Shown here one piece after another: positions 4,408-10,240 of a DNA stretch of 26,258 nt (its first letter is position 1; every line of letters starts with the position of its first letter). The DNA is from a virus. The stretch spans positions 1 through 26,258 of IMG/VR virus record IMGVR_UViG_3300032285_003008. One strand, given 5' to 3'. Under the pieces are notes generated by a model. The model was not told where the DNA came from, made no database searches, and worked only from the letters and a program-made list of their open reading frames with translations. The translations under genes were made by a program, and so were the position numbers.

Positions 4408-4632
4408 ATGGAAGAGGTTTTTTTCGGCAAATATCACGATAGCGGCGATTACTGGCAGGTGTATCTCGATATCGGAGAGGATACGGCCCAGATACAGGTC
4501 GTGCTGGATCATGATGACGAACAGCTTGTGCGTGACATCGTTTGGCTGCCGATCCAGATGCTTCCCGCTTTGGCTACGGCCATTAACGGCTATTTCGCTG
4601 GCACGAAGAAGCTGGTGGAGGTGGTGATATGA
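4408..4632 (+). CDS. Small acidic protein, first gene of the rightward operon
   Basis: A 74-residue acidic protein (MEEVFFGKYHDSGDYWQVYL at the start). It appears to be beta strands followed by a helix (LPIQMLPALATAINGYFAGT). The ATG at 4408 follows a strong GGAAAGGGA site; the longer frame from 4321 starts inside the promoter region and is rejected. Its stop overlaps the exonuclease start in an ATGA. Leading an operon of DNA recombination genes, it may be a DNA-mimic or regulatory protein, but that is speculation and no family is recognised. Confidence 0.7.
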   Translation: MEEVFFGKYHDSGDYWQVYLDIGEDTAQIQVVLDHDDEQLVRDIVWLPIQMLPALATAINGYFAGTKKLVEVVI

Positions 4633-5537
4633 GCGGTTTTAGCGCCGACGAGCGCCGCAGCGCCTGGTGGAGCACCGATAGCCGCCGCGCCGTGTCTGGC
4701 AAGGCATTTGAGGTGGTGGCCGAGAAGATTGGCAAGTCCGAGCGCCCCGATCTGAGCGAGGTGGAGGTGGTTCAGATGGGTCTCCGCATGGAAGCCACCA
4801 TCGCAGCCTTTGCCAGCGAGGAATTGGGCCAGCTTAAGGCTCTGGGCGATGCGGTTGCCACCCACCGGCAATATCCGTGGCTTAAGAGCCATGGCGACTA
4901 TATGGCTCAGGACAATTCGTTCCTCGTGGAGTGCAAAAACTACAACGCGCTGCATATCCACAACTATTCAGAGCCTGGCGAGCCTGTGCGGGTTCCCAAC
5001 GCCGATTGGGCGCAGTGCTGCCACGAAGCCGCCTGTTTCGGCGTGTCTACCGTCTATCTGTGCATCCTGTTCGGCGGGCAGCGGTTTCGCACCTTCCGGC
5101 TGGATTTCTCAGAGGATGAGATGGAAGGCCAAATCCAGAAGATGGCAAAGCTCTGGGCCATGGTGGAAACGAACACCCTGCCTGACCCGGAAAGCGTGTC
5201 TCAGTGCAAAGCGGCCTACCCGGCCAGCACTGAGGGCATCGCCACAGCCTCTCTGGAACTTGAGCAGGCCGCTAAGAGGCTTGCCGGCATCAAGGCGTCC
5301 ATCAAAGCCTTTGAGGCCGAGGAGGACCGCCTACAGACGGCTATACAGCGCGCCATGGGCGATGCCGGCGAAATGCACACGCTGGACGGGCGCACCCTCG
5401 CCACATGGAAGAGCGCGAAGCCCTCCAAGCGTTTCAGTGCGGACCTGTTCAAGGCCGCATACCCAGACATCTACGAGAGTTTCGTAGTTGAGCAGCCGGG
5501 AAGCCGGCGTTTCTTGTTGAAGGAGAGAGCAGAATGA
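4629..5537 (+). CDS. YqaJ-type viral recombinase exonuclease (PD-(D/E)XK nuclease)
   Basis: A 302-residue protein. The nuclease core is in residues 1-170. E55 is in MGLRMEATI, D90 in SHGDYM, and E101/K103 form the E-x-K of FLVECKNYN, followed by Q129 in DWAQCCHEA. This order matches the YqaJ/lambda-exonuclease-like viral recombinase fold, which resects double-stranded ends to expose single strands for an annealing protein. Residues 205-260 are a predicted coiled coil and the C-terminus (residues 262-302) is a small extra domain. The RecT-like annealing gene lies two genes downstream, forming a typical two-component recombination system. ATGA overlaps couple it on both sides. Confidence 0.85.
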   Translation: MSGFSADERRSAWWSTDSRRAVSGKAFEVVAEKIGKSERPDLSEVEVVQMGLRMEATIAAFASEELGQLKALGDAVATHRQYPWLKSHGDYMAQDNSFLVECKNYNALHIHNYSEPGEPVRVPNADWAQCCHEAACFGVSTVYLCILFGGQRFRTFRLDFSEDEMEGQIQKMAKLWAMVETNTLPDPESVSQCKAAYPASTEGIATASLELEQAAKRLAGIKASIKAFEAEEDRLQTAIQRAMGDAGEMHTLDGRTLATWKSAKPSKRFSADLFKAAYPDIYESFVVEQPGSRRFLLKERAE

Positions 5538-5782
5538 GTGATTGGAAAGAATGGCGCGTGGCGGATACCGACATCCCCAAGCGCATCAAGACCGTGCTGA
5601 TGAGCGCGGAACCGTCAATGACCTGGCAGGACGTGCTGGACATGACCGAGCGGGACATGATGAGCCTGCCCCACATGGGCAAGACGAACCGCGCCAATCT
5701 GCTGCATGTGCTGCGGGATGGCATGGCCGGCAAGCTCGTGAAGTGCAACAGGACGTTGGGCGAGGTGGTCAGCGATGTCTAA
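5534..5782 (+). CDS. Helix-hairpin-helix protein resembling an RNA polymerase alpha C-terminal domain
   Basis: An 82-residue protein. Residues 14-62 read as a single compact helical domain: DIPKRIKTVLMSAE, then WQDVLDMTERDMMSLP, then HMGKTNRANLLHVL. The layout (helix, DLL-like helix, 'M-x-x-L-P-x-M-G-K-x-N' hairpin, helix) closely follows the bacterial RNA polymerase alpha C-terminal domain and related helix-hairpin-helix DNA binders. It lies between the exonuclease and the annealing protein, with 4- and 8-nt overlaps. It could assist DNA binding by the recombination complex or contact host transcription. The fold is inferred from the sequence pattern only. Confidence 0.65.
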   Translation: MSDWKEWRVADTDIPKRIKTVLMSAEPSMTWQDVLDMTERDMMSLPHMGKTNRANLLHVLRDGMAGKLVKCNRTLGEVVSDV

Positions 5783-6518
5783 CATCGTTCCCATGGCGGA
5801 CATCCAGAAGATGGCGCAGGTGGCAGCCGATAGCAAAATGTTTGGCTTCAAAAACCAAGCAGAAGCTATGGCTATCATGCTGCTGTGCCAAGCCGAGGAT
5901 ATGCACCCGGCCATAGCCATGCGGGATTACCATGTGATCCAAGGGCGTCCCGCGCTCAAGTCTGACGCCATGCTCGCCCGCTTCCAGACATCTGGGGGCA
6001 AGGTGAACTGGACCTCATACTCGGATGATGTGGTGACCGGCGTGTTCAGCCATCCCCAAGGCGGCGACGTGAGCATCAGTTGGACCATGGAAATGGCCCA
6101 CCGTTTGGGCTTCACCAAGAAGGAGAATTGGCGCAACTACCCGCGCGCCATGCTCCGCGCCCGCTGCATTTCTGAGGGCATCCGCACCGTGTTTCCCGCG
6201 TGTGTGGCTGGTGTGTATACGCCAGAGGAAGTGGCCGACTTCACGCCGCCCAAGGGCGCTAGGGTGGTGGACGTTGTGCCAGAGCCTGAGCCGGAACCGG
6301 AGAGCGAATTGACCGTCCACCTCTTCAAGCCTGACGGCACGATCTACGCCAGCTTTGAAACTGAGGCGGAAGCCTACCAGGCCTACTACAAAGTTGTGGA
6401 CGGCATCGCGGCCAATCCGCGCATCCCCGAGGAGGAGAAACTGACCAAGTTGCGTAAGTTTAAGGCCGCAAACTTACATTGGATGGAACCCGAGACGGAA
6501 GAGGAACCCGCAGAATGA
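5775..6518 (+). CDS. RecT-like single-strand annealing protein
   Basis: A 247-residue protein. Residues 20-60 (MFGFKNQAEAMAIMLLCQAE onward) fit the start of RecT-family proteins, where a phage annealing protein binds single-stranded DNA. The segment YPRAMLRARCISEGIRTVFP followed by VAGVYTPEEV (about residues 122-152) is a highly characteristic RecT-family signature. The tail is acidic and Pro/Glu-rich (PEPEPEPE, about residues 168-176), with an extra C-terminal segment to residue 247. With the upstream YqaJ exonuclease it makes an exonuclease/annealase pair for recombination-dependent repair or replication. The start overlaps the previous gene by 8 nt. Confidence 0.85.
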   Translation: MSNIVPMADIQKMAQVAADSKMFGFKNQAEAMAIMLLCQAEDMHPAIAMRDYHVIQGRPALKSDAMLARFQTSGGKVNWTSYSDDVVTGVFSHPQGGDVSISWTMEMAHRLGFTKKENWRNYPRAMLRARCISEGIRTVFPACVAGVYTPEEVADFTPPKGARVVDVVPEPEPEPESELTVHLFKPDGTIYASFETEAEAYQAYYKVVDGIAANPRIPEEEKLTKLRKFKAANLHWMEPETEEEPAE

Positions 6519-6829
6519 GCAGCACATATGCAGACAAGCCCGGCAAGGGCGCAATCTTCAGCACCGAGAAGAAAAGCGAGAAAGGCCCGGACTACAAGGG
6601 CAACCTCGTGCTGGATCGGGATTACAAGGCCGGCGAACAGGTCAAACTGGCGGGCTGGCAGAAAACCAGCCGCCGCGGGCCGATGGTCAGTCTCAGCATT
6701 GACTCTTGGAAGCCCGATCCCGATTGGAAGCCCGATCCCGAAAAGGCGAAGGAGCGGGAGAACACGTATCGGCCAGGCGGTATGACCCGCTTCGACGACG
6801 ACGTGCCATTCAGTCCTGAGCATAGATAA
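6515..6829 (+). CDS. Small OB-fold-like protein, possible single-stranded DNA-binding accessory
   Basis: A 104-residue protein. Residues 10-67 alternate strand-forming stretches (KGAIFSTEKKSEKGPDYKGN, then VKLAGWQKTSRRGPMVSLSI) in a pattern seen in short phage and plasmid proteins thought to form a beta barrel. The C-terminal 35 residues are charged, contain a duplicated hexapeptide WKPDPD, and end in an acidic and basic mix (FDDDVPFSPEHR). It sits between the annealing protein and a resolvase-like nuclease, so a single-strand-binding or accessory role is plausible. It is not recognisable as a canonical SSB. The ATG at 6515 overlaps the previous stop; the longer frame from 6479 is rejected. 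Confidence 0.6.
   Translation: MSSTYADKPGKGAIFSTEKKSEKGPDYKGNLVLDRDYKAGEQVKLAGWQKTSRRGPMVSLSIDSWKPDPDWKPDPEKAKERENTYRPGGMTRFDDDVPFSPEHR
6706..6741. repeat. Perfect 18-bp tandem duplication
   Basis: TTGGAAGCCCGATCCCGA at 6706-6723 is followed without interruption by an identical copy at 6724-6741. It lies in frame inside the 104-residue gene and duplicates six codons (W-K-P-D-P-D). The perfect identity points to a recent slippage event or a repeat kept by selection. Confidence 0.9.
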
Positions 6830-7146
6830 TGGGCAAGGCGCAGCGCACCCGCGGCCAAGTTTTTGAGCGCGAAATAGTCAACACGCTGAAGGACGCCGGC
6901 ATAGACGCTGCGCGCAACCTAGACCAGACGCGCGATGGCGGTGGTGACATCGACCTTGGCGCGTACATGATCGAGTGCAAGCGCCGGGCCAGCATCGCCG
7001 TGTATGACTGGCTAGACCAATGCACACGCGCCGCCAGGCCGGGGCAAATCCCGCTGGTGGTGGCAAGGGGCGACAGGCGGGAAGCCGTTGTCATCCTGCG
7101 CCTAGACGATTTTATCCCAATGCTTGGAAAGGAAACAAAGGAATGA
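6829..7146 (+). CDS. Holliday-junction-resolvase-like PD-(D/E)XK nuclease
   Basis: A 105-residue protein whose sequence fits a minimal PD-(D/E)XK nuclease. There is an N-terminal helix with glutamates (RGQVFEREIVNTLKDAG, E13/E15), then aspartates in GGGDIDL (D40, D42), then E49-C-K51 in MIECKRR. Residues 53-70 form a helix and residues 74-94 a final strand pair (IPLVVARGD, AVVILRLDDF). The size and layout match archaeal-Hjc-type and phage resolvases that cut recombination intermediates. It completes the recombination module with the exonuclease and the annealing protein. Its ATG overlaps the preceding stop by one base (TAATG), which fixes the start. Confidence 0.75.
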   Translation: MGKAQRTRGQVFEREIVNTLKDAGIDAARNLDQTRDGGGDIDLGAYMIECKRRASIAVYDWLDQCTRAARPGQIPLVVARGDRREAVVILRLDDFIPMLGKETKE

Positions 7147-7205
7147 GCGAACCAGCAAAAGACGAAGCCGCCATACTCGCAGCAGCGCCGGGGGTGGAGC
7201 AATGA
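7143..7205 (+). CDS. Tiny 20-codon gene linking two operon genes
   Basis: A 20-residue frame (MSEPAKDEAAILAAAPGVEQ). Its ATG overlaps the resolvase stop and its TGA overlaps the ATG of the next gene. It may be a real micropeptide or simply a translational bridge that carries ribosomes from one gene to the next. The GGGGGTGGAG before its stop serves as the ribosome binding site of the next gene. No function can be assigned. Confidence 0.4.
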   Translation: MSEPAKDEAAILAAAPGVEQ

Positions 7206-7411
7206 GCGATGAGCGAGAAGCCGCGCTTCAAACGCTGGAATACGCTAGAGGCTACGCCGCCGCGTGGACAGAATGGAATGCATGCGCCACCGTGGCGAAC
7301 CCCCGTGACCGCGAGTTTCTGGATCGCGGTCGGGTGCAAGTGGGTGAGCGCAGCAGTGAGGCTGTCCGGGTGCTGCGTCAACTTCGCGCAGGACCGGAGG
7401 TGAAGCCATGA
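7202..7411 (+). CDS. Small helical protein, first gene of the junction-repeat array
   Basis: A 69-residue protein, mostly helical (ALQTLEYARGYAAAWTEWNA in the first half, QVGERSSEAVRVLRQL in the second), ending in P-E-V-K-P. The final codons GAG-GTG-AAG-CCA-TGA are part of the 16-bp junction repeat that also gives the next gene its ribosome binding site and start. GGTGGAG precedes the ATG at 7202. It has no membrane segment or known domain. The place downstream of recombination genes, among other small unknowns, suggests an accessory, perhaps host-directed, role. Confidence 0.65.
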   Translation: MSDEREAALQTLEYARGYAAAWTEWNACATVANPRDREFLDRGRVQVGERSSEAVRVLRQLRAGPEVKP

Positions 7412-7590
7412 GCAAGTCAGAATTGGAAAAAATAGCTTCTGATCTTCTAACGGTGGCCGGTGTTGCTATAGACCATTGGAACAATGGCAATGAAGAATTG
7501 GCGATAGCAGGACTGACGGGCTTTGTGCGCGGGCTTGCATCCGCCCTAGGTGCTCGTGCGGCTGCCATGAAAGAAGAGGTGAAGCCATGA
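7408..7590 (+). CDS. Small helical protein in the junction-repeat array
   Basis: A 60-residue protein starting M-S-K-S and ending E-E-V-K-P. The core is two helices (ELEKIASDLLTVAGVAIDHW and EELAIAGLTGFVRGLASAL), the second quite hydrophobic but not a clear membrane span. Start and stop both lie in copies of the junction repeat, giving an exact cassette. Its first four residues match those of the next gene because the DNA identity between the two junctions continues past the start codon. The function is unknown. Confidence 0.65.
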   Translation: MSKSELEKIASDLLTVAGVAIDHWNNGNEELAIAGLTGFVRGLASALGARAAAMKEEVKP

Positions 7591-7967
7591 GCAAGTCGTT
7601 GGATGAGTTGGATTCCGTCAAGGTAGAACTGGACGCCCTCCGCGCCGAGAACGCGCGGCTGCGGGAGGCGCTGCACGAGATTGCCGCAAACGCGGCTGTG
7701 CCGGGCTTTGAGCCAGAGCAGCGTCACGCCATTTGGCGGATGGCCCGCGCAGCATCAGGCCCATACGGACAAAAAGAGCGCAGAGCAAAAGCCCTGTCTG
7801 AACTGGCCGAGATAGATGCCGATCTGCTGGATATAGAGCCGGAGGTGAAGCCCGCATGGCCGCCCGCTGGCTGCATTCGGATTGATAGCTGCGAGAGGCA
7901 CGGCCAGTGCATGTATTTGGGATGCGTCAATCAGGGGAAGAAAGCAGCGCAGGAGGTGAAGCCATGA
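7587..7967 (+). CDS. Two-part small protein, apparent fusion of two former cassettes
   Basis: A 126-residue protein. Residues 5-35 are a leucine-rich coiled coil (SVKVELDALRAENARLREAL). Residues 36-85 are polar helices ending in E-P-E-V-K-P at about residue 89. After that comes a distinct 37-residue tail with three cysteines (CIRIDSCERHGQCMYLGC) that again ends E-V-K-P. The internal E-V-K-P is encoded by a 12-bp copy of the gene-junction repeat at 7841-7852, whose stop codon is lost, so the frame reads through. The cysteine tail could bind metal. No known family is recognised for either half. Confidence 0.65.
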   Translation: MSKSLDELDSVKVELDALRAENARLREALHEIAANAAVPGFEPEQRHAIWRMARAASGPYGQKERRAKALSELAEIDADLLDIEPEVKPAWPPAGCIRIDSCERHGQCMYLGCVNQGKKAAQEVKP

Positions 7968-8200
7968 CGCATAAGCCTGTGACAACCATGGATGAGCTAT
8001 TGGCGTTGGATTCTAAAAAAAGCTGGGAGGCGTATCTAAACACGGGAAAAGGCGACCCAGAGCCGGGCGATAATCACAGCCGGGCATATCATCATGGATG
8101 GCGCGTAAAAATGATGGATTTGGGAGAAATCCCGATCCCGCCAGAGCATCGGGAATTAACTCGCCAGTATATTAAGCATGCGCGGGAGGTGAAGCCATGA
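7964..8200 (+). CDS. Small hypothetical protein in the junction-repeat array
   Basis: A 78-residue polar protein (MTHKPVTTMDELLALDSKKS at the start). It has a helical beginning, then a glycine/histidine segment (DNHSRAYHHGWRVKMMDLG), a proline pair and a final helix ending R-E-V-K-P. The ATG at 7964 and the stop at 8198-8200 are both inside the junction repeat. Codon use is more AT-rich at its 5' end than in its neighbours. The G-D-x-x-S-x-A-Y-x-x-G-W segment resembles short phage proteins of unknown role. No function is assigned. Confidence 0.65.
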   Translation: MTHKPVTTMDELLALDSKKSWEAYLNTGKGDPEPGDNHSRAYHHGWRVKMMDLGEIPIPPEHRELTRQYIKHAREVKP

Positions 8201-8382
8201 GAGAACAGCAAACCACGGGCTGGCGCTTCGCCGTGCAGCGCATGGTTGACCGCCTGACGGGCGGCAGGGTTGATGCGCAAATGCCGAGCGGCAAGCCCAA
8301 TCACGGTGCGCGGCGCTACAACCGTATGGCCGCGCGCGGGACAGTGTTCATATCTGGGATGAGCCGGAGGATGAAGCCATGA
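8197..8382 (+). CDS. Small basic protein in the junction-repeat array
   Basis: A 61-residue, strongly basic protein (MREQQTTGWRFAVQRMVDRL at the start, then GARRYNRMAARG), ending R-R-M-K-P. It starts in one copy of the junction repeat and stops in another. The last copy carries an extra A, which changes the usual ending from V-K-P to M-K-P. The charge would suit nucleic-acid binding, but no domain is recognised. It is translationally coupled to the zinc-ribbon regulator downstream. Confidence 0.6.
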   Translation: MREQQTTGWRFAVQRMVDRLTGGRVDAQMPSGKPNHGARRYNRMAARGTVFISGMSRRMKP

Positions 8383-8942
8383 AGCCAAGGCAACGTGAGC
8401 CTATCACGCCAGAGGAACGTGACACGATACGCCAAAAACGGCGGGAAGGCGCATCGCTTGAAGAACTAGCCCAAGAGTTTCGCTGCTCGCCCATCACCGC
8501 CCGCCGCATATGCTCCAACGTGCTACCCAGAACCTGGCCCGGCCCACGCCCGAAAGAAGACAAGCCGGTCAGGCAGCGCGTCCGCTGGTCGCCCGAGATA
8601 ATCGGCGGCGTTAACCCCGGTGGCATCCGATGGACGCCCGAGGAAGACAAGCGGCTGTTTGATTTGCTGCAAGAAGGCTGCACGATCCGCCAAATAGCCG
8701 AAAAGCTAGACCGCAATTATGCCAGCGTGAAGGACAAAGTGGCCCGTCTATGGCGTGGCGGCGAAAGCCCGCGCAAGAAAGGCGCTGAGCCGCCCCTACC
8801 GCCTAGACAGCCTCGCGTGGTGAAGGAACAACCCAACACCAGCCGCGTGAAGTGCCTGAAGTGCCTTAAGGCATTTGATAGCTATGACCCACGGCGCAAC
8901 CGCATCTGCGCGCGGTGCAAAGACAGAGAGGACTGGAATTGA
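8379..8942 (+). CDS. DNA-binding regulator with HTH, SANT/GcrA-like and zinc-ribbon segments
   Basis: A 187-residue protein with three recognisable parts. Residues 11-46 form a helix-turn-helix (GASLEELAQEFRCSPITARR). Residues 84-124 form a Myb/SANT- or GcrA-like helix set (RWTPEEDKRLFDLLQEG, then IRQIAEKLDRNYASVKDKV). Residues 159-180 form a zinc ribbon with C159-x2-C162 and C177-x2-C180. Similar combinations occur in phage and alphaproteobacterial transcription regulators. It follows the small-gene array, with an ATGA overlap, and precedes the glycosyltransferase fusion. It may control late gene expression; that is inference. Confidence 0.75.
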   Translation: MKPRQREPITPEERDTIRQKRREGASLEELAQEFRCSPITARRICSNVLPRTWPGPRPKEDKPVRQRVRWSPEIIGGVNPGGIRWTPEEDKRLFDLLQEGCTIRQIAEKLDRNYASVKDKVARLWRGGESPRKKGAEPPLPPRQPRVVKEQPNTSRVKCLKCLKAFDSYDPRRNRICARCKDREDWN

Positions 8943-10240
8943 TGGATCACGTTAAACTTATGGTCGCCACGCCTATGTACGGCGGCATGTGCATGGGCTG
9001 GTATCAGCAATCCATGATGGGGCTGTCCAACGCCGTCAAAATGCGCGGCTGGGATTTCATGTCCACCATGCAATTCAATGAATCGCTTATCCAGCGCGCC
9101 CGCAACGCGCTCACCAAGGCATTCCTCAAGACAGACTGCACTCACCTGCTATTCATCGACGCGGACATCAAATTCGATCCGCAGCACATCATCGCCATGG
9201 TGGAAGCCGATCTAGACATCCTTGCGGGCATCTATCCCAAGAAGGAAATCAACTGGTGGAGCGTGGCTGAAGCCGTCAAGCGCGGCGTGCCGCATGAGCA
9301 GCTCAAGTACCACACCGGCAGTTTCGTGGTGAACCTGCTAGACGGGGCTTCCAGCGCCACCACACCCAGCAACCAGCCCTTGGAAGTGCTGAACGCCGGC
9401 ACCGGCTGTATGCTCATCAAGCGCCGCGTGTTTGAGGTTCTGGAACCCGTCACCGACACCTACATGAATGACGTTCTGGACCTGTCAGGCATTCTGAAGC
9501 CAGAACCGATCCACGCTTTCTTTGATGTCACGATCTGCCCGGAGAGCGAACGCCTGCTGAGCGAGGATTACCATTTCTGCCAAGCCTGGCGGCGTGCCGG
9601 CGGGAAGGTCTTTGTCGCACCTTGGGTGCAATTGTCCCATATCGGCACCTACGAGTTTGAGGGCCGTCTTTTGCAGGAGCGCCGCATGCCTGAGTTTACC
9701 CAAGACTGGTTCAGCCACAACATCCCCGGCTTGGAGCGCGTGATGTCGCTGCTACCGGAAAAACAAGCCTTCCTTGAAATCGGCGCGTTTGAAGGCCGCT
9801 CCACGCTCTGGTTTTGCGAACAACTACACAAGTCCTGCGGTTACATTGACGTAATCGACACATGGAGCGGAAGCGAAGAGCACGTCGGCATTGACTTTGA
9901 GGCGGTAAAACGCCGCTTTGATGCCAATGTTGAAGACAGAGACGAGGTACTGCCATTTAGGGGCAACTTGTTTCAGTTTATGGTTGACGGACGGGCCGAC
10001 TCTTACGACTTCATTTACATAGACGGCAGCCATCAAGCACCGCACGTTCTAGCGGATGCCTGCATGGCCTGGCCCATGCTCAAGAAGGGCGGCATCATGG
10101 TTTTTGATGACTACCTATGGGGCTTCAACGAGCCGCCCACACACACGCCCAAGATGGCCGTGGATGCCTTCATCGCCTGCTACCGTGAACAACTAGAAAT
10201 AGTCATGGAAGGCTATCAGTGGGGCATTAGGAAACTGTAA
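8942..10240 (+). CDS. Glycosyltransferase-methyltransferase fusion protein
   Basis: A 432-residue two-domain protein. Residues 1-250 resemble a GT-A glycosyltransferase. It has an N-terminal VATPMYGG strand, the metal-binding D-A-D at 73-75 in LLFIDADIKFD, an acceptor-side NAGTGCMLIKR (151-161), and a late acidic SEDYHFCQAWRRAGG. Residues 270-432 resemble a class I SAM methyltransferase of the Methyltransf_24 type: FLEIGAFEGRSTLW (277-290), D305 in VIDTWSG, FIYIDGSH (357-364) and GGIMVFDDYLWG (383-394). It could glycosylate and methylate a sugar on DNA, virion or host surface. It is the last gene of the rightward operon; its ATG overlaps the preceding stop as TGATG. Confidence 0.85.
   Translation: MDHVKLMVATPMYGGMCMGWYQQSMMGLSNAVKMRGWDFMSTMQFNESLIQRARNALTKAFLKTDCTHLLFIDADIKFDPQHIIAMVEADLDILAGIYPKKEINWWSVAEAVKRGVPHEQLKYHTGSFVVNLLDGASSATTPSNQPLEVLNAGTGCMLIKRRVFEVLEPVTDTYMNDVLDLSGILKPEPIHAFFDVTICPESERLLSEDYHFCQAWRRAGGKVFVAPWVQLSHIGTYEFEGRLLQERRMPEFTQDWFSHNIPGLERVMSLLPEKQAFLEIGAFEGRSTLWFCEQLHKSCGYIDVIDTWSGSEEHVGIDFEAVKRRFDANVEDRDEVLPFRGNLFQFMVDGRADSYDFIYIDGSHQAPHVLADACMAWPMLKKGGIMVFDDYLWGFNEPPTHTPKMAVDAFIACYREQLEIVMEGYQWGIRKL

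What the first reader, a model, noticed from the sequence alone, without database searches (positions are those of the whole stretch)
7396..8382. A reused 16-bp gene-junction sequence stitches a row of small genes
GGAGGTGAAGCCATGA occurs at five successive gene boundaries, with a sixth degenerate copy inside a gene. Each copy is at once the end of one gene (E-V-K-P-stop), the Shine-Dalgarno site and the ATGA start of the next. The proteins are unrelated to each other apart from this shared tail. Selection for a good ribosome site alone would not conserve all 16 bases. Shared junctions could let homologous recombination insert, delete or reorder single-gene cassettes without breaking translation. 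The phage's own YqaJ/RecT-like pair lies immediately upstream. This differs from CRISPR, from bacterial REP sequences and from ordinary operon overlaps, though it is reminiscent of start-associated repeats described in some mycobacteriophages.
Basis: partly seen in the sequence, partly recalled or inferred. Interest (0 to 1): 0.78.

Follow-up and report, generated by a model that had tools for sequence, protein, structure and literature searches.

The report
Reused junctions stitch swappable phage genes
In this uncultured bacterial virus a row of small unknown genes is joined end to start by copies of the same short sequence, and comparison with about 40 related or gene-sharing viral fragments shows that genes are swapped, lost and gained at these joints without breaking the neighbours.

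Summary
Five successive gene boundaries carry the sequence: three exact copies, one with a 1-base change, one with a 1-base insertion. Shuffling predicts about 0.2 copies.

In 19 related contigs the 13-base core GGTGAAGCC[A/G]TGA occurs 20 times inside the variable slot between the rusA-like and HTH genes, and never outside it (367 kb, both strands). Gene content of the slot differs almost everywhere: empty in one relative, five or more genes in others. Homology blocks begin and end at the junctions far above the null. Single genes move as exact junction-to-junction units, also into phages with unrelated cores. The copy inside gene C is a former junction.

The exact 16-mer is not special in itself: a permuted-spacer control 16-mer is also common in viral contigs, and both cluster locally between unrelated small genes. 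So local reuse of a start/stop junction looks like a wider phage habit.

Junctions as exchange breakpoints are shown. Homology-directed exchange by the phage's exonuclease/RecT pair is inferred and rivalled by RBS hitch-hiking plus selection. New variant of known kinds (start-associated sequences, T4 PeSLs, lambda nin chain).

The parts
4629..5537 (+). YqaJ/RecE-like exonuclease
   Evidence: phrog_434 E=1.2e-46; 83-100% identical in close relatives
5775..6518 (+). RecT-like annealing protein
   Evidence: phrog_561 E=5.9e-28; used to find the relatives
6515..6829 (+). single-strand DNA-binding protein-like
   Evidence: phrog_18154 E=4e-7
6829..7146 (+). Holliday-junction-resolvase-like (PHROG name RusA-like), conserved left flank of the variable slot
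   Evidence: phrog_244 E=1.4e-20; 88-96% identical in relatives
7143..7205 (+). 20-codon 'empty cassette' MSEPAKDEAAILAAAPGVEQ*: common start module fused to common tail module
   Evidence: start and tail modules match separate parts of genes of relatives; same form in L129 10694-10754
7190..7205 (+). degenerate junction GGGGGTGGAGCAATGA (3 mismatches)
7202..7411 (+). small gene A (69 aa), tail PEVKP
   Evidence: 82% DNA match to L249 from the tail module upstream through the next junction
7396..7411 (+). junction copy, exact
7408..7590 (+). small gene B (60 aa), tail EEVKP
   Evidence: moves with its upstream junction: homologue in L137 at 6155 behind a different gene
7575..7590 (+). junction copy, 1 mismatch
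7587..7967 (+). small gene C (126 aa), two former cassettes fused over an old junction
   Evidence: L104 homologue is 72 aa and ends in EVKP* at the corresponding place (87% DNA)
7841..7852 (+). fossil junction GGAGGTGAAGCC inside gene C
7952..7967 (+). junction copy, exact
7964..8200 (+). small gene D (78 aa), tail REVKP
   Evidence: phrog_4460 E=1e-6, unknown function
8185..8200 (+). junction copy, exact
8197..8382 (+). small gene E (61 aa), tail RRMKP
   Evidence: exact-unit match to L143 3096-3281; homology starts at the junction and stops at the next ATGA
8366..8382 (+). junction copy with one inserted base GGAGGATGAAGCCATGA
   Evidence: sequence
8379..8942 (+). helix-turn-helix / D5-like regulator, conserved right flank of the slot
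   Evidence: PF13936 E=9e-10, phrog_323 E=2e-14

Best explanation
The region is a swap slot in the recombination operon of a tailed phage, filled with small accessory genes. Each gene boundary is a stop/start overlap (ATGA) embedded in a repeated 13-30 bp block that serves as the tail of the left gene and the ribosome site and start of the right gene. A crossover anywhere in the block leaves the left gene's end, the right gene's ribosome site and both reading frames intact, so genes can be inserted, deleted, replaced or shuffled one unit at a time. Shown here: the repeat; its confinement to the slot; different gene content between relatives; homology edges at junctions; the same upstream gene followed by four different downstream genes and the reverse; exact-unit matches in phages with unrelated cores; an empty slot, empty 20-codon cassettes and a fossil fused junction. 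Inferred: that the repeat's homology itself promotes the exchanges, most likely by exonuclease resection and single-strand annealing by the phage RecT, or Erf in other carriers, during co-infection or with a resident prophage. The longer tail and start modules (24-50 bp) reach the minimal pairing length reported for Redbeta; the bare 13-17 bp joints would work only rarely. Also inferred: that the shared joint persists because it is both a strong ribosome site and a safe crossover point.
For: GGTGAAGCC[AG]TGA 20 copies in 13.1 kb of slot against 0 in 367 kb outside. K codon before P-stop is AAG in 30 of 30 tails, while AAG is 60% of Lys codons overall, so the conservation is of DNA and not only of protein. 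HSPs of 100 bp or more: 51% of left ends lie within -15..0 of a start, null 5.7%. Base-level edges: gene E, gene B, the HTH gene behind unrelated upstream genes, and the L133 empty slot. Cross-lineage units: L146/L051 93.5% over 553 bp with left edge at -10; L143/L249 with edges -12 and +3; L219/L244 with edges -30 and +10. 49 junctions: 16 upstream and 22 downstream families in 34 pairings, and the EVKP frame is open at all 51 clade and pool junctions. Fossil junction. Bases identical upstream of starts between contigs: mean 4.6 in the slot, 1.2 at comparable starts elsewhere. Exonuclease/RecT pair nearby. Redbeta minimal pairing segment 23-27 bp (PMC3945230).
Against: The ssb|rusA slot gains whole genes exactly with 0-4 bp of shared upstream sequence between unrelated arrangements, so homology is not needed for exact insertion. 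Many joints share only 13-17 bp, below the Redbeta minimum. Records with unrelated cores that carry the joints lack a RecT relative, and most lack a detected annealase, though many are fragments. The 16-mer alone is a common viral start site. The pool contigs were fetched by tail patterns, so their long shared tails are partly by selection.
Confidence: 0.58

Rival explanations
1. Hitch-hiking: cassettes are exchanged by illegitimate recombination anywhere, and selection keeps only gene-exact joins. Because the ribosome site of each gene lies in the last codons of the gene before, a moving gene carries the block along and leaves EVKP-like tails. The repeat is a by-product, not a promoter of exchange.
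For: Gene-exact insertion without any repeat at ssb|rusA. The joint contains everything a gene needs to be translated. Many joints are shorter than known minimal homologies.
Against: The joint dissociates from both neighbours: the same downstream gene (HTH) has several different joints, and the same joint serves 22 downstream families. The joint is always in the EVKP frame (51 of 51), although a join in the frame that stops at GGTGA would also be viable. Homology often covers tail plus start (24-50 bp), more than a ribosome site.
Confidence: 0.27
2. Translation-only element: the block is held by selection for strong, coupled translation (or binds a phage factor), as proposed for mycobacteriophage start-associated sequences; breakpoints there are incidental.
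For: GGAGGTG is a perfect Shine-Dalgarno 5 nt from the start. Confined to early small genes, as SASs are (PMC3203893).
Against: The AAGCC spacer and the upstream RAALEV/AAAPGV bases have no pairing role, yet are shared. Starts elsewhere in the same genomes do not use the block. The lysine wobble base is fixed. Homology edges concentrate there. No stem-loop or inverted repeat.
Confidence: 0.1
3. Tandem duplication of one ancestral small gene followed by divergence beyond recognition, leaving only the ends alike.
For: Some genes share start (MSEPAKDEA, MSK) and tail modules; two empty start+tail cassettes exist.
Against: Interiors are different families, many shared intact with other phages. Array neighbours in other phages show no homology either. 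Tails vary while the joint stays.
Confidence: 0.04
4. Shared short functional C-terminal peptide (degron or docking tail VKP).
For: K-P end is invariant in the window.
Against: Fixed AAG codon; tails vary (EVKP, GVKP, KWKP, AGKP, RMKP); other lineages have EVTA, EIAP or LGEKE tails at their own reused joints.
Confidence: 0.01

Closest known systems
Start-associated sequences (SAS/ESAS) of Cluster K mycobacteriophages (PMC3203893)
   Same: Short asymmetric repeat with Shine-Dalgarno at starts of unrelated non-structural genes; bases conserved beyond rRNA pairing; the authors suggest possible use as homologous recombination targets.
   Different: SAS is GGGATAGGAGCCC, mostly before genes with more than 50 bp of intergenic DNA, half with 17-bp inverted repeats. 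Here genes overlap by ATGA, the repeat codes the left gene's tail, there are no inverted repeats, and junction-bounded exchange is demonstrated.
PeSLs (promoter early stem-loops) of T4-type phages (Arbiol 2010, Comeau 2014; read only as cited in PMC4503421 and PMC3950731)
   Same: Repeated regulatory element between small accessory genes that marks and mediates modular shuffling.
   Different: PeSLs are intergenic promoter/stem-loop units acting at transcription; here the element is a coding stop/start joint with no promoter or stem-loop.
nin region of phage lambda (a chain of ATGA-overlapped small genes)
   Same: Dispensable small genes linked by stop/start overlaps in the early region; mosaic among lambdoid phages (nin literature recalled; comparison to accessory regions in PMC4378225).
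   Different: Inspection of the lambda nin junctions (J02459) shows stop/start overlaps but no near-identical junction sequence reused from gene to gene.
Rad52-like annealase-driven mosaicism (De Paepe 2014, PMC3945230)
   Same: Phage annealases recombine short, diverged homologies; here an exonuclease/RecT pair lies next to the slot.
   Different: There homology is whatever happens to be shared; here a short joint recurs at each gene boundary.
Protein fragment shuffling in phages (PMC10684548)
   Same: Cassette proteins here also share internal modules (DALRAENARLREAL, AIRAAGWAVVPVEPTEEM) with otherwise different proteins.
   Different: The reported cases are domains of larger proteins of known classes; here the shared DNA lies in tiny unknown proteins and at their joints.

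Membership tests
Start-associated sequences (SAS) | 13-bp consensus GGGATAGGAGCCC | tested here: not met
   Repeat is GGAGGTGAAGCCATGA
Start-associated sequences (SAS) | Repeat sits at the ribosome site of unrelated non-structural genes, one orientation | tested here: met
   all on + strand, in front of unrelated early genes, none elsewhere
Start-associated sequences (SAS) | Genes mostly preceded by intergenic gaps over 50 bp | tested here: not met
   4-nt ATGA overlaps
Start-associated sequences (SAS) | 17-bp inverted repeats upstream of about half (ESAS) | tested here: not met
   No inverted repeats in 7100-8450
T4 PeSL cassettes | Early promoter plus stem-loop between genes | tested here: not met
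   No + strand promoter-like site at the joints and no stable stem-loop; sigma-70 consensus scan only
T4 PeSL cassettes | Element marks sites of modular shuffling | tested here: met
lambda nin-type chain | Dispensable small genes linked by stop/start overlaps in the early region | tested here: inconclusive
   Overlaps and absence of the whole set in L133 seen; dispensability for growth not testable here
Integron-type cassette array | Integrase and recombination sites at gene ends | not tested
   No dedicated integrase search was run; the joint has no inverted repeats as attC sites would

The most novel reading that the evidence does not exclude
Many phages keep a lineage-specific start/stop joint that is reused between neighbouring unrelated small genes and acts as a snap-fit connector: a recombinase-guided, site-tolerant cassette system without a dedicated integrase, maintained because it makes the accessory region easy to rearrange. 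Support: EVKP, EVTA, EIAP/EVTP and LGEKE joints reused in phages of 35-68% GC.
Probability: 0.25. Interest if true: 0.85.

Novelty: new variant of a known kind. Interest (0 to 1): 0.62.

Why it matters
How phage accessory genes swap with gene-exact precision is usually put down to random joining plus selection. Here the joint itself is repeated, lies inside coding sequence, and coincides with natural breakpoints across unrelated phages, so the question becomes directly testable: change the joint, keep the ribosome site, and measure exchange. It also gives a simple way to find accessory arrays of unknown small genes: search for locally reused start/stop joints.

Tried and rejected
Cultured relatives: none; best RecT matches are 49-65% to uncultured spring phages, and window DNA has only weak hits. 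Host: the tail 24-mer pattern gave one unrelated bacterial contig in 84,980 species genomes, so no host could be named. Literature search for nin boundary sequences returned nothing readable. Functions of cassette proteins: Pfam, PHROGs and NCBIfam give none beyond unknown families; the padloc scan failed because of one bad coordinate and was not repeated. RNA structure or inverted repeat at the joint: none. A first frame script failed on an off-by-one and was corrected.

Full report
OBSERVATION. The window holds GGAGGTGAAGCCATGA exactly at 7396, 7952 and 8185, with one mismatch at 7575, and up to three mismatches at 7190, 7841 and 8367; shuffles give 0.24. The 8366-8382 copy is better read as one inserted base. 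The repeat finder recovers the same seven places as one 18-nt family with no inverted repeats. So there are five successive boundaries as reported, a sixth degenerate boundary at 7190, and one internal copy. Each boundary is an ATGA stop/start overlap; the block supplies the last codons (E-V-K-P or variant) of the left gene and a perfect Shine-Dalgarno site for the right gene. Read in the three frames, the 16-mer stops translation in two (GG-TGA and CA-TGA), and the third runs in frame into the next gene. The five proteins share only Met1 and the final K-P.

SETTING. The array lies downstream of an exonuclease, a small ORF, a RecT-like annealing protein, an SSB-like protein and a Holliday-junction-resolvase-like gene, and upstream of an HTH regulator. 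The window is a 26,258-base fragment of an uncultured phage. Searches with RecT, the resolvase and the HTH protein gave about 28 close relatives, all with the same flanking order where the contig reaches. No cultured relative exists in the phage collection.

THE SLOT IS VARIABLE, THE FLANKS ARE NOT. Flanking proteins are mostly 75-100% identical, but the interval between resolvase and HTH runs from 0 bp (L133) to over 1.5 kb (L129), with different genes in almost every contig. In L133 the resolvase stop overlaps the HTH start directly: its left side matches the window's resolvase end up to ATGA and its right side matches the window's HTH start from ATGA. This is an empty site with the breakpoint at the start/stop overlap.

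THE JUNCTION IS CONFINED TO THE SLOT. In 19 clade contigs, GGTGAAGCC[AG]TGA occurs 20 times in 13.1 kb of slot and 0 times in 367 kb elsewhere on both strands; AAGCC[AG]TGA 34 times against 9. The lysine codon in the K-P tails is AAG in 30 of 30 cases although AAG makes up 60% of lysine codons (427 of 716) in these genes. These tails are partly related by descent, so the implied odds are not a clean P value, but the wobble base is not needed for the ribosome site or for the amino acid. Bases identical immediately upstream of starts average 4.6 between contigs in the slot and 1.2 at comparable overlapped starts elsewhere.

EXCHANGES ARE BOUNDED BY JUNCTIONS. For DNA matches of 100 bp or more between slots, 51% of left ends fall within -15..0 of a start (null 5.7%, maximum of 300 random sets 11%) and 17% of right ends within -1..+6 (null 2.9%); pairs are not independent, but the effect is large. 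Worked cases: gene E of the window and L143 match from about 15 nt before the start through the next ATGA and not beyond; gene B and L137 match from the joint on, behind unrelated genes; the HTH gene follows unrelated genes with identity starting at GGTGAAGCC. Across unrelated phage types: L146/L051 93.5% over 553 bp with left edge at -10; L143/L249 edges -12/+3; L219/L244 edges -30/+10. The same upstream gene (ending ...AARAALEVKP, or AARAALKVKP in L257) is followed by four different genes in L140, L051, L092 and L257. Altogether 49 joints from 32 contigs show 16 upstream and 22 downstream families in 34 pairings, and the EVKP frame is open for at least 40 codons at 51 of 51 clade and pool joints. 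Records of 50-60 kb that carry these cassettes have no relative of the window's RecT or of its 646-aa structural-region protein; two records carry an Erf-type annealase instead.

FOSSILS. The internal copy in gene C lies where the homologue in L104 ends with EVKP* (72 aa), so gene C is a fusion across an old joint. The ORF 7143-7205 is just the common start module joined to the common tail module, an emptied cassette; L129 has the like. Besides the joint, longer modules recur: the start ATGAGCGAACCAGCAAAAGACGAAGCC, a 42-bp coiled-coil block, an AIRAAGWAVVPVEP block, and two tail blocks of about 30 bp. Exchange edges also fall on the start and coil modules, so shuffling is not only at gene joints.

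CONTROLS AND LIMITS. (b) Both sets show local reuse: 12 of 114 and 9 of 120 loci have a second copy within 700 bp on the same strand, while each core is absent from the other set (0 in about 2 Mb), and the downstream proteins are not recognisably homologous. Some of these loci are near-duplicates. In loci not chosen by any joint pattern, similar joints lie close together more often than after permutation (12 pairs; within-locus mean 3.1, maximum 10 of 300), including GGGAGAAAAGGATGA, GGAGATAGCCCCATGA and AAGGAGGCCAAGCCGTGA types. (c) In the neighbouring ssb|rusA slot whole genes are gained exactly at ATG with only 0-4 shared upstream bases between unrelated arrangements: gene-exact insertion does not need, and does not create, a repeat. 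(d) Identity across joints with unrelated neighbours has a median of 16 bp, and 12% reach 23 bp; the search core fixes 12-13 of these bases and the pool contigs were fetched by long tails, so this is an upper view. The reported minimal pairing segment is 23-27 bp for Redbeta and 31-34 for RecA (PMC3945230).

MECHANISM. Shown: joints are reused, confined, and coincide with exchange edges. Inferred: homology at joint plus tail or start modules guides strand annealing by phage annealases after exonuclease resection; the joint's layout makes such crossovers harmless to both genes, so recombinants survive and the joint spreads. The main rival is hitch-hiking of ribosome sites with cassettes plus selection. 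Independent assortment of joints from both neighbours and the constant frame favour homology; the ssb|rusA control and the short joints favour the rival.

COMPARISON. Closest are start-associated sequences of Cluster K mycobacteriophages, whose authors suggested a possible recombination role (PMC3203893), PeSLs of T4-type phages (cited in PMC4503421 and PMC3950731), and the lambda nin chain, whose joints overlap but do not repeat a near-identical sequence by inspection. No defining consensus, inverted repeat or promoter stem-loop of these is present, so this is filed as a new variant that works like them, not as a member.

Noticed in passing
window 8942-10240: Glycosyltransferase-like and methyltransferase-like genes are one 432-aa ORF here but two separate genes in L133, L138, L143, L145 and L149; natural fusion or assembly artefact.
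   Followed up: no
ssb|rusA interval: L129 8862-9660, L132 3190-3638, L135 2773-3771: Second variable slot with single inserted genes (by reading only: PAPS-reductase-like, HNH-like, cytosine-methyltransferase-like) and no joint repeat; used as a control.
   Followed up: partly
L140 7000-7033 compared with window 7120-7146: A second joint type: the resolvase gene's end CTTGGAAAGGAAACAAAGGAATGA also ends an unrelated gene in L140.
   Followed up: partly
window 7626-7673 and many relatives: A 42-bp DNA block coding DALRAENARLREAL recurs inside otherwise different small proteins and is itself an exchange edge.
   Followed up: partly
L072 4171-5271 (35% GC phage), L111, L061, L011, L037: Runs of EVKP joints (a WVKP/KVKP variant in L037) between unrelated small genes in phages unrelated to the window.
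   Followed up: partly
L298, L314, L339, L365 (control set): EVTA joints GGAGGTGACAGCATGA reused between unrelated neighbours, found only because the pattern was used as a control.
   Followed up: partly
L224 4486-5020, L225: Sister lineage has its own reused joint GGGAGAAAAGG(A/C)ATGA, with LGEKE/LGEKA tails, at the same slot.
   Followed up: partly
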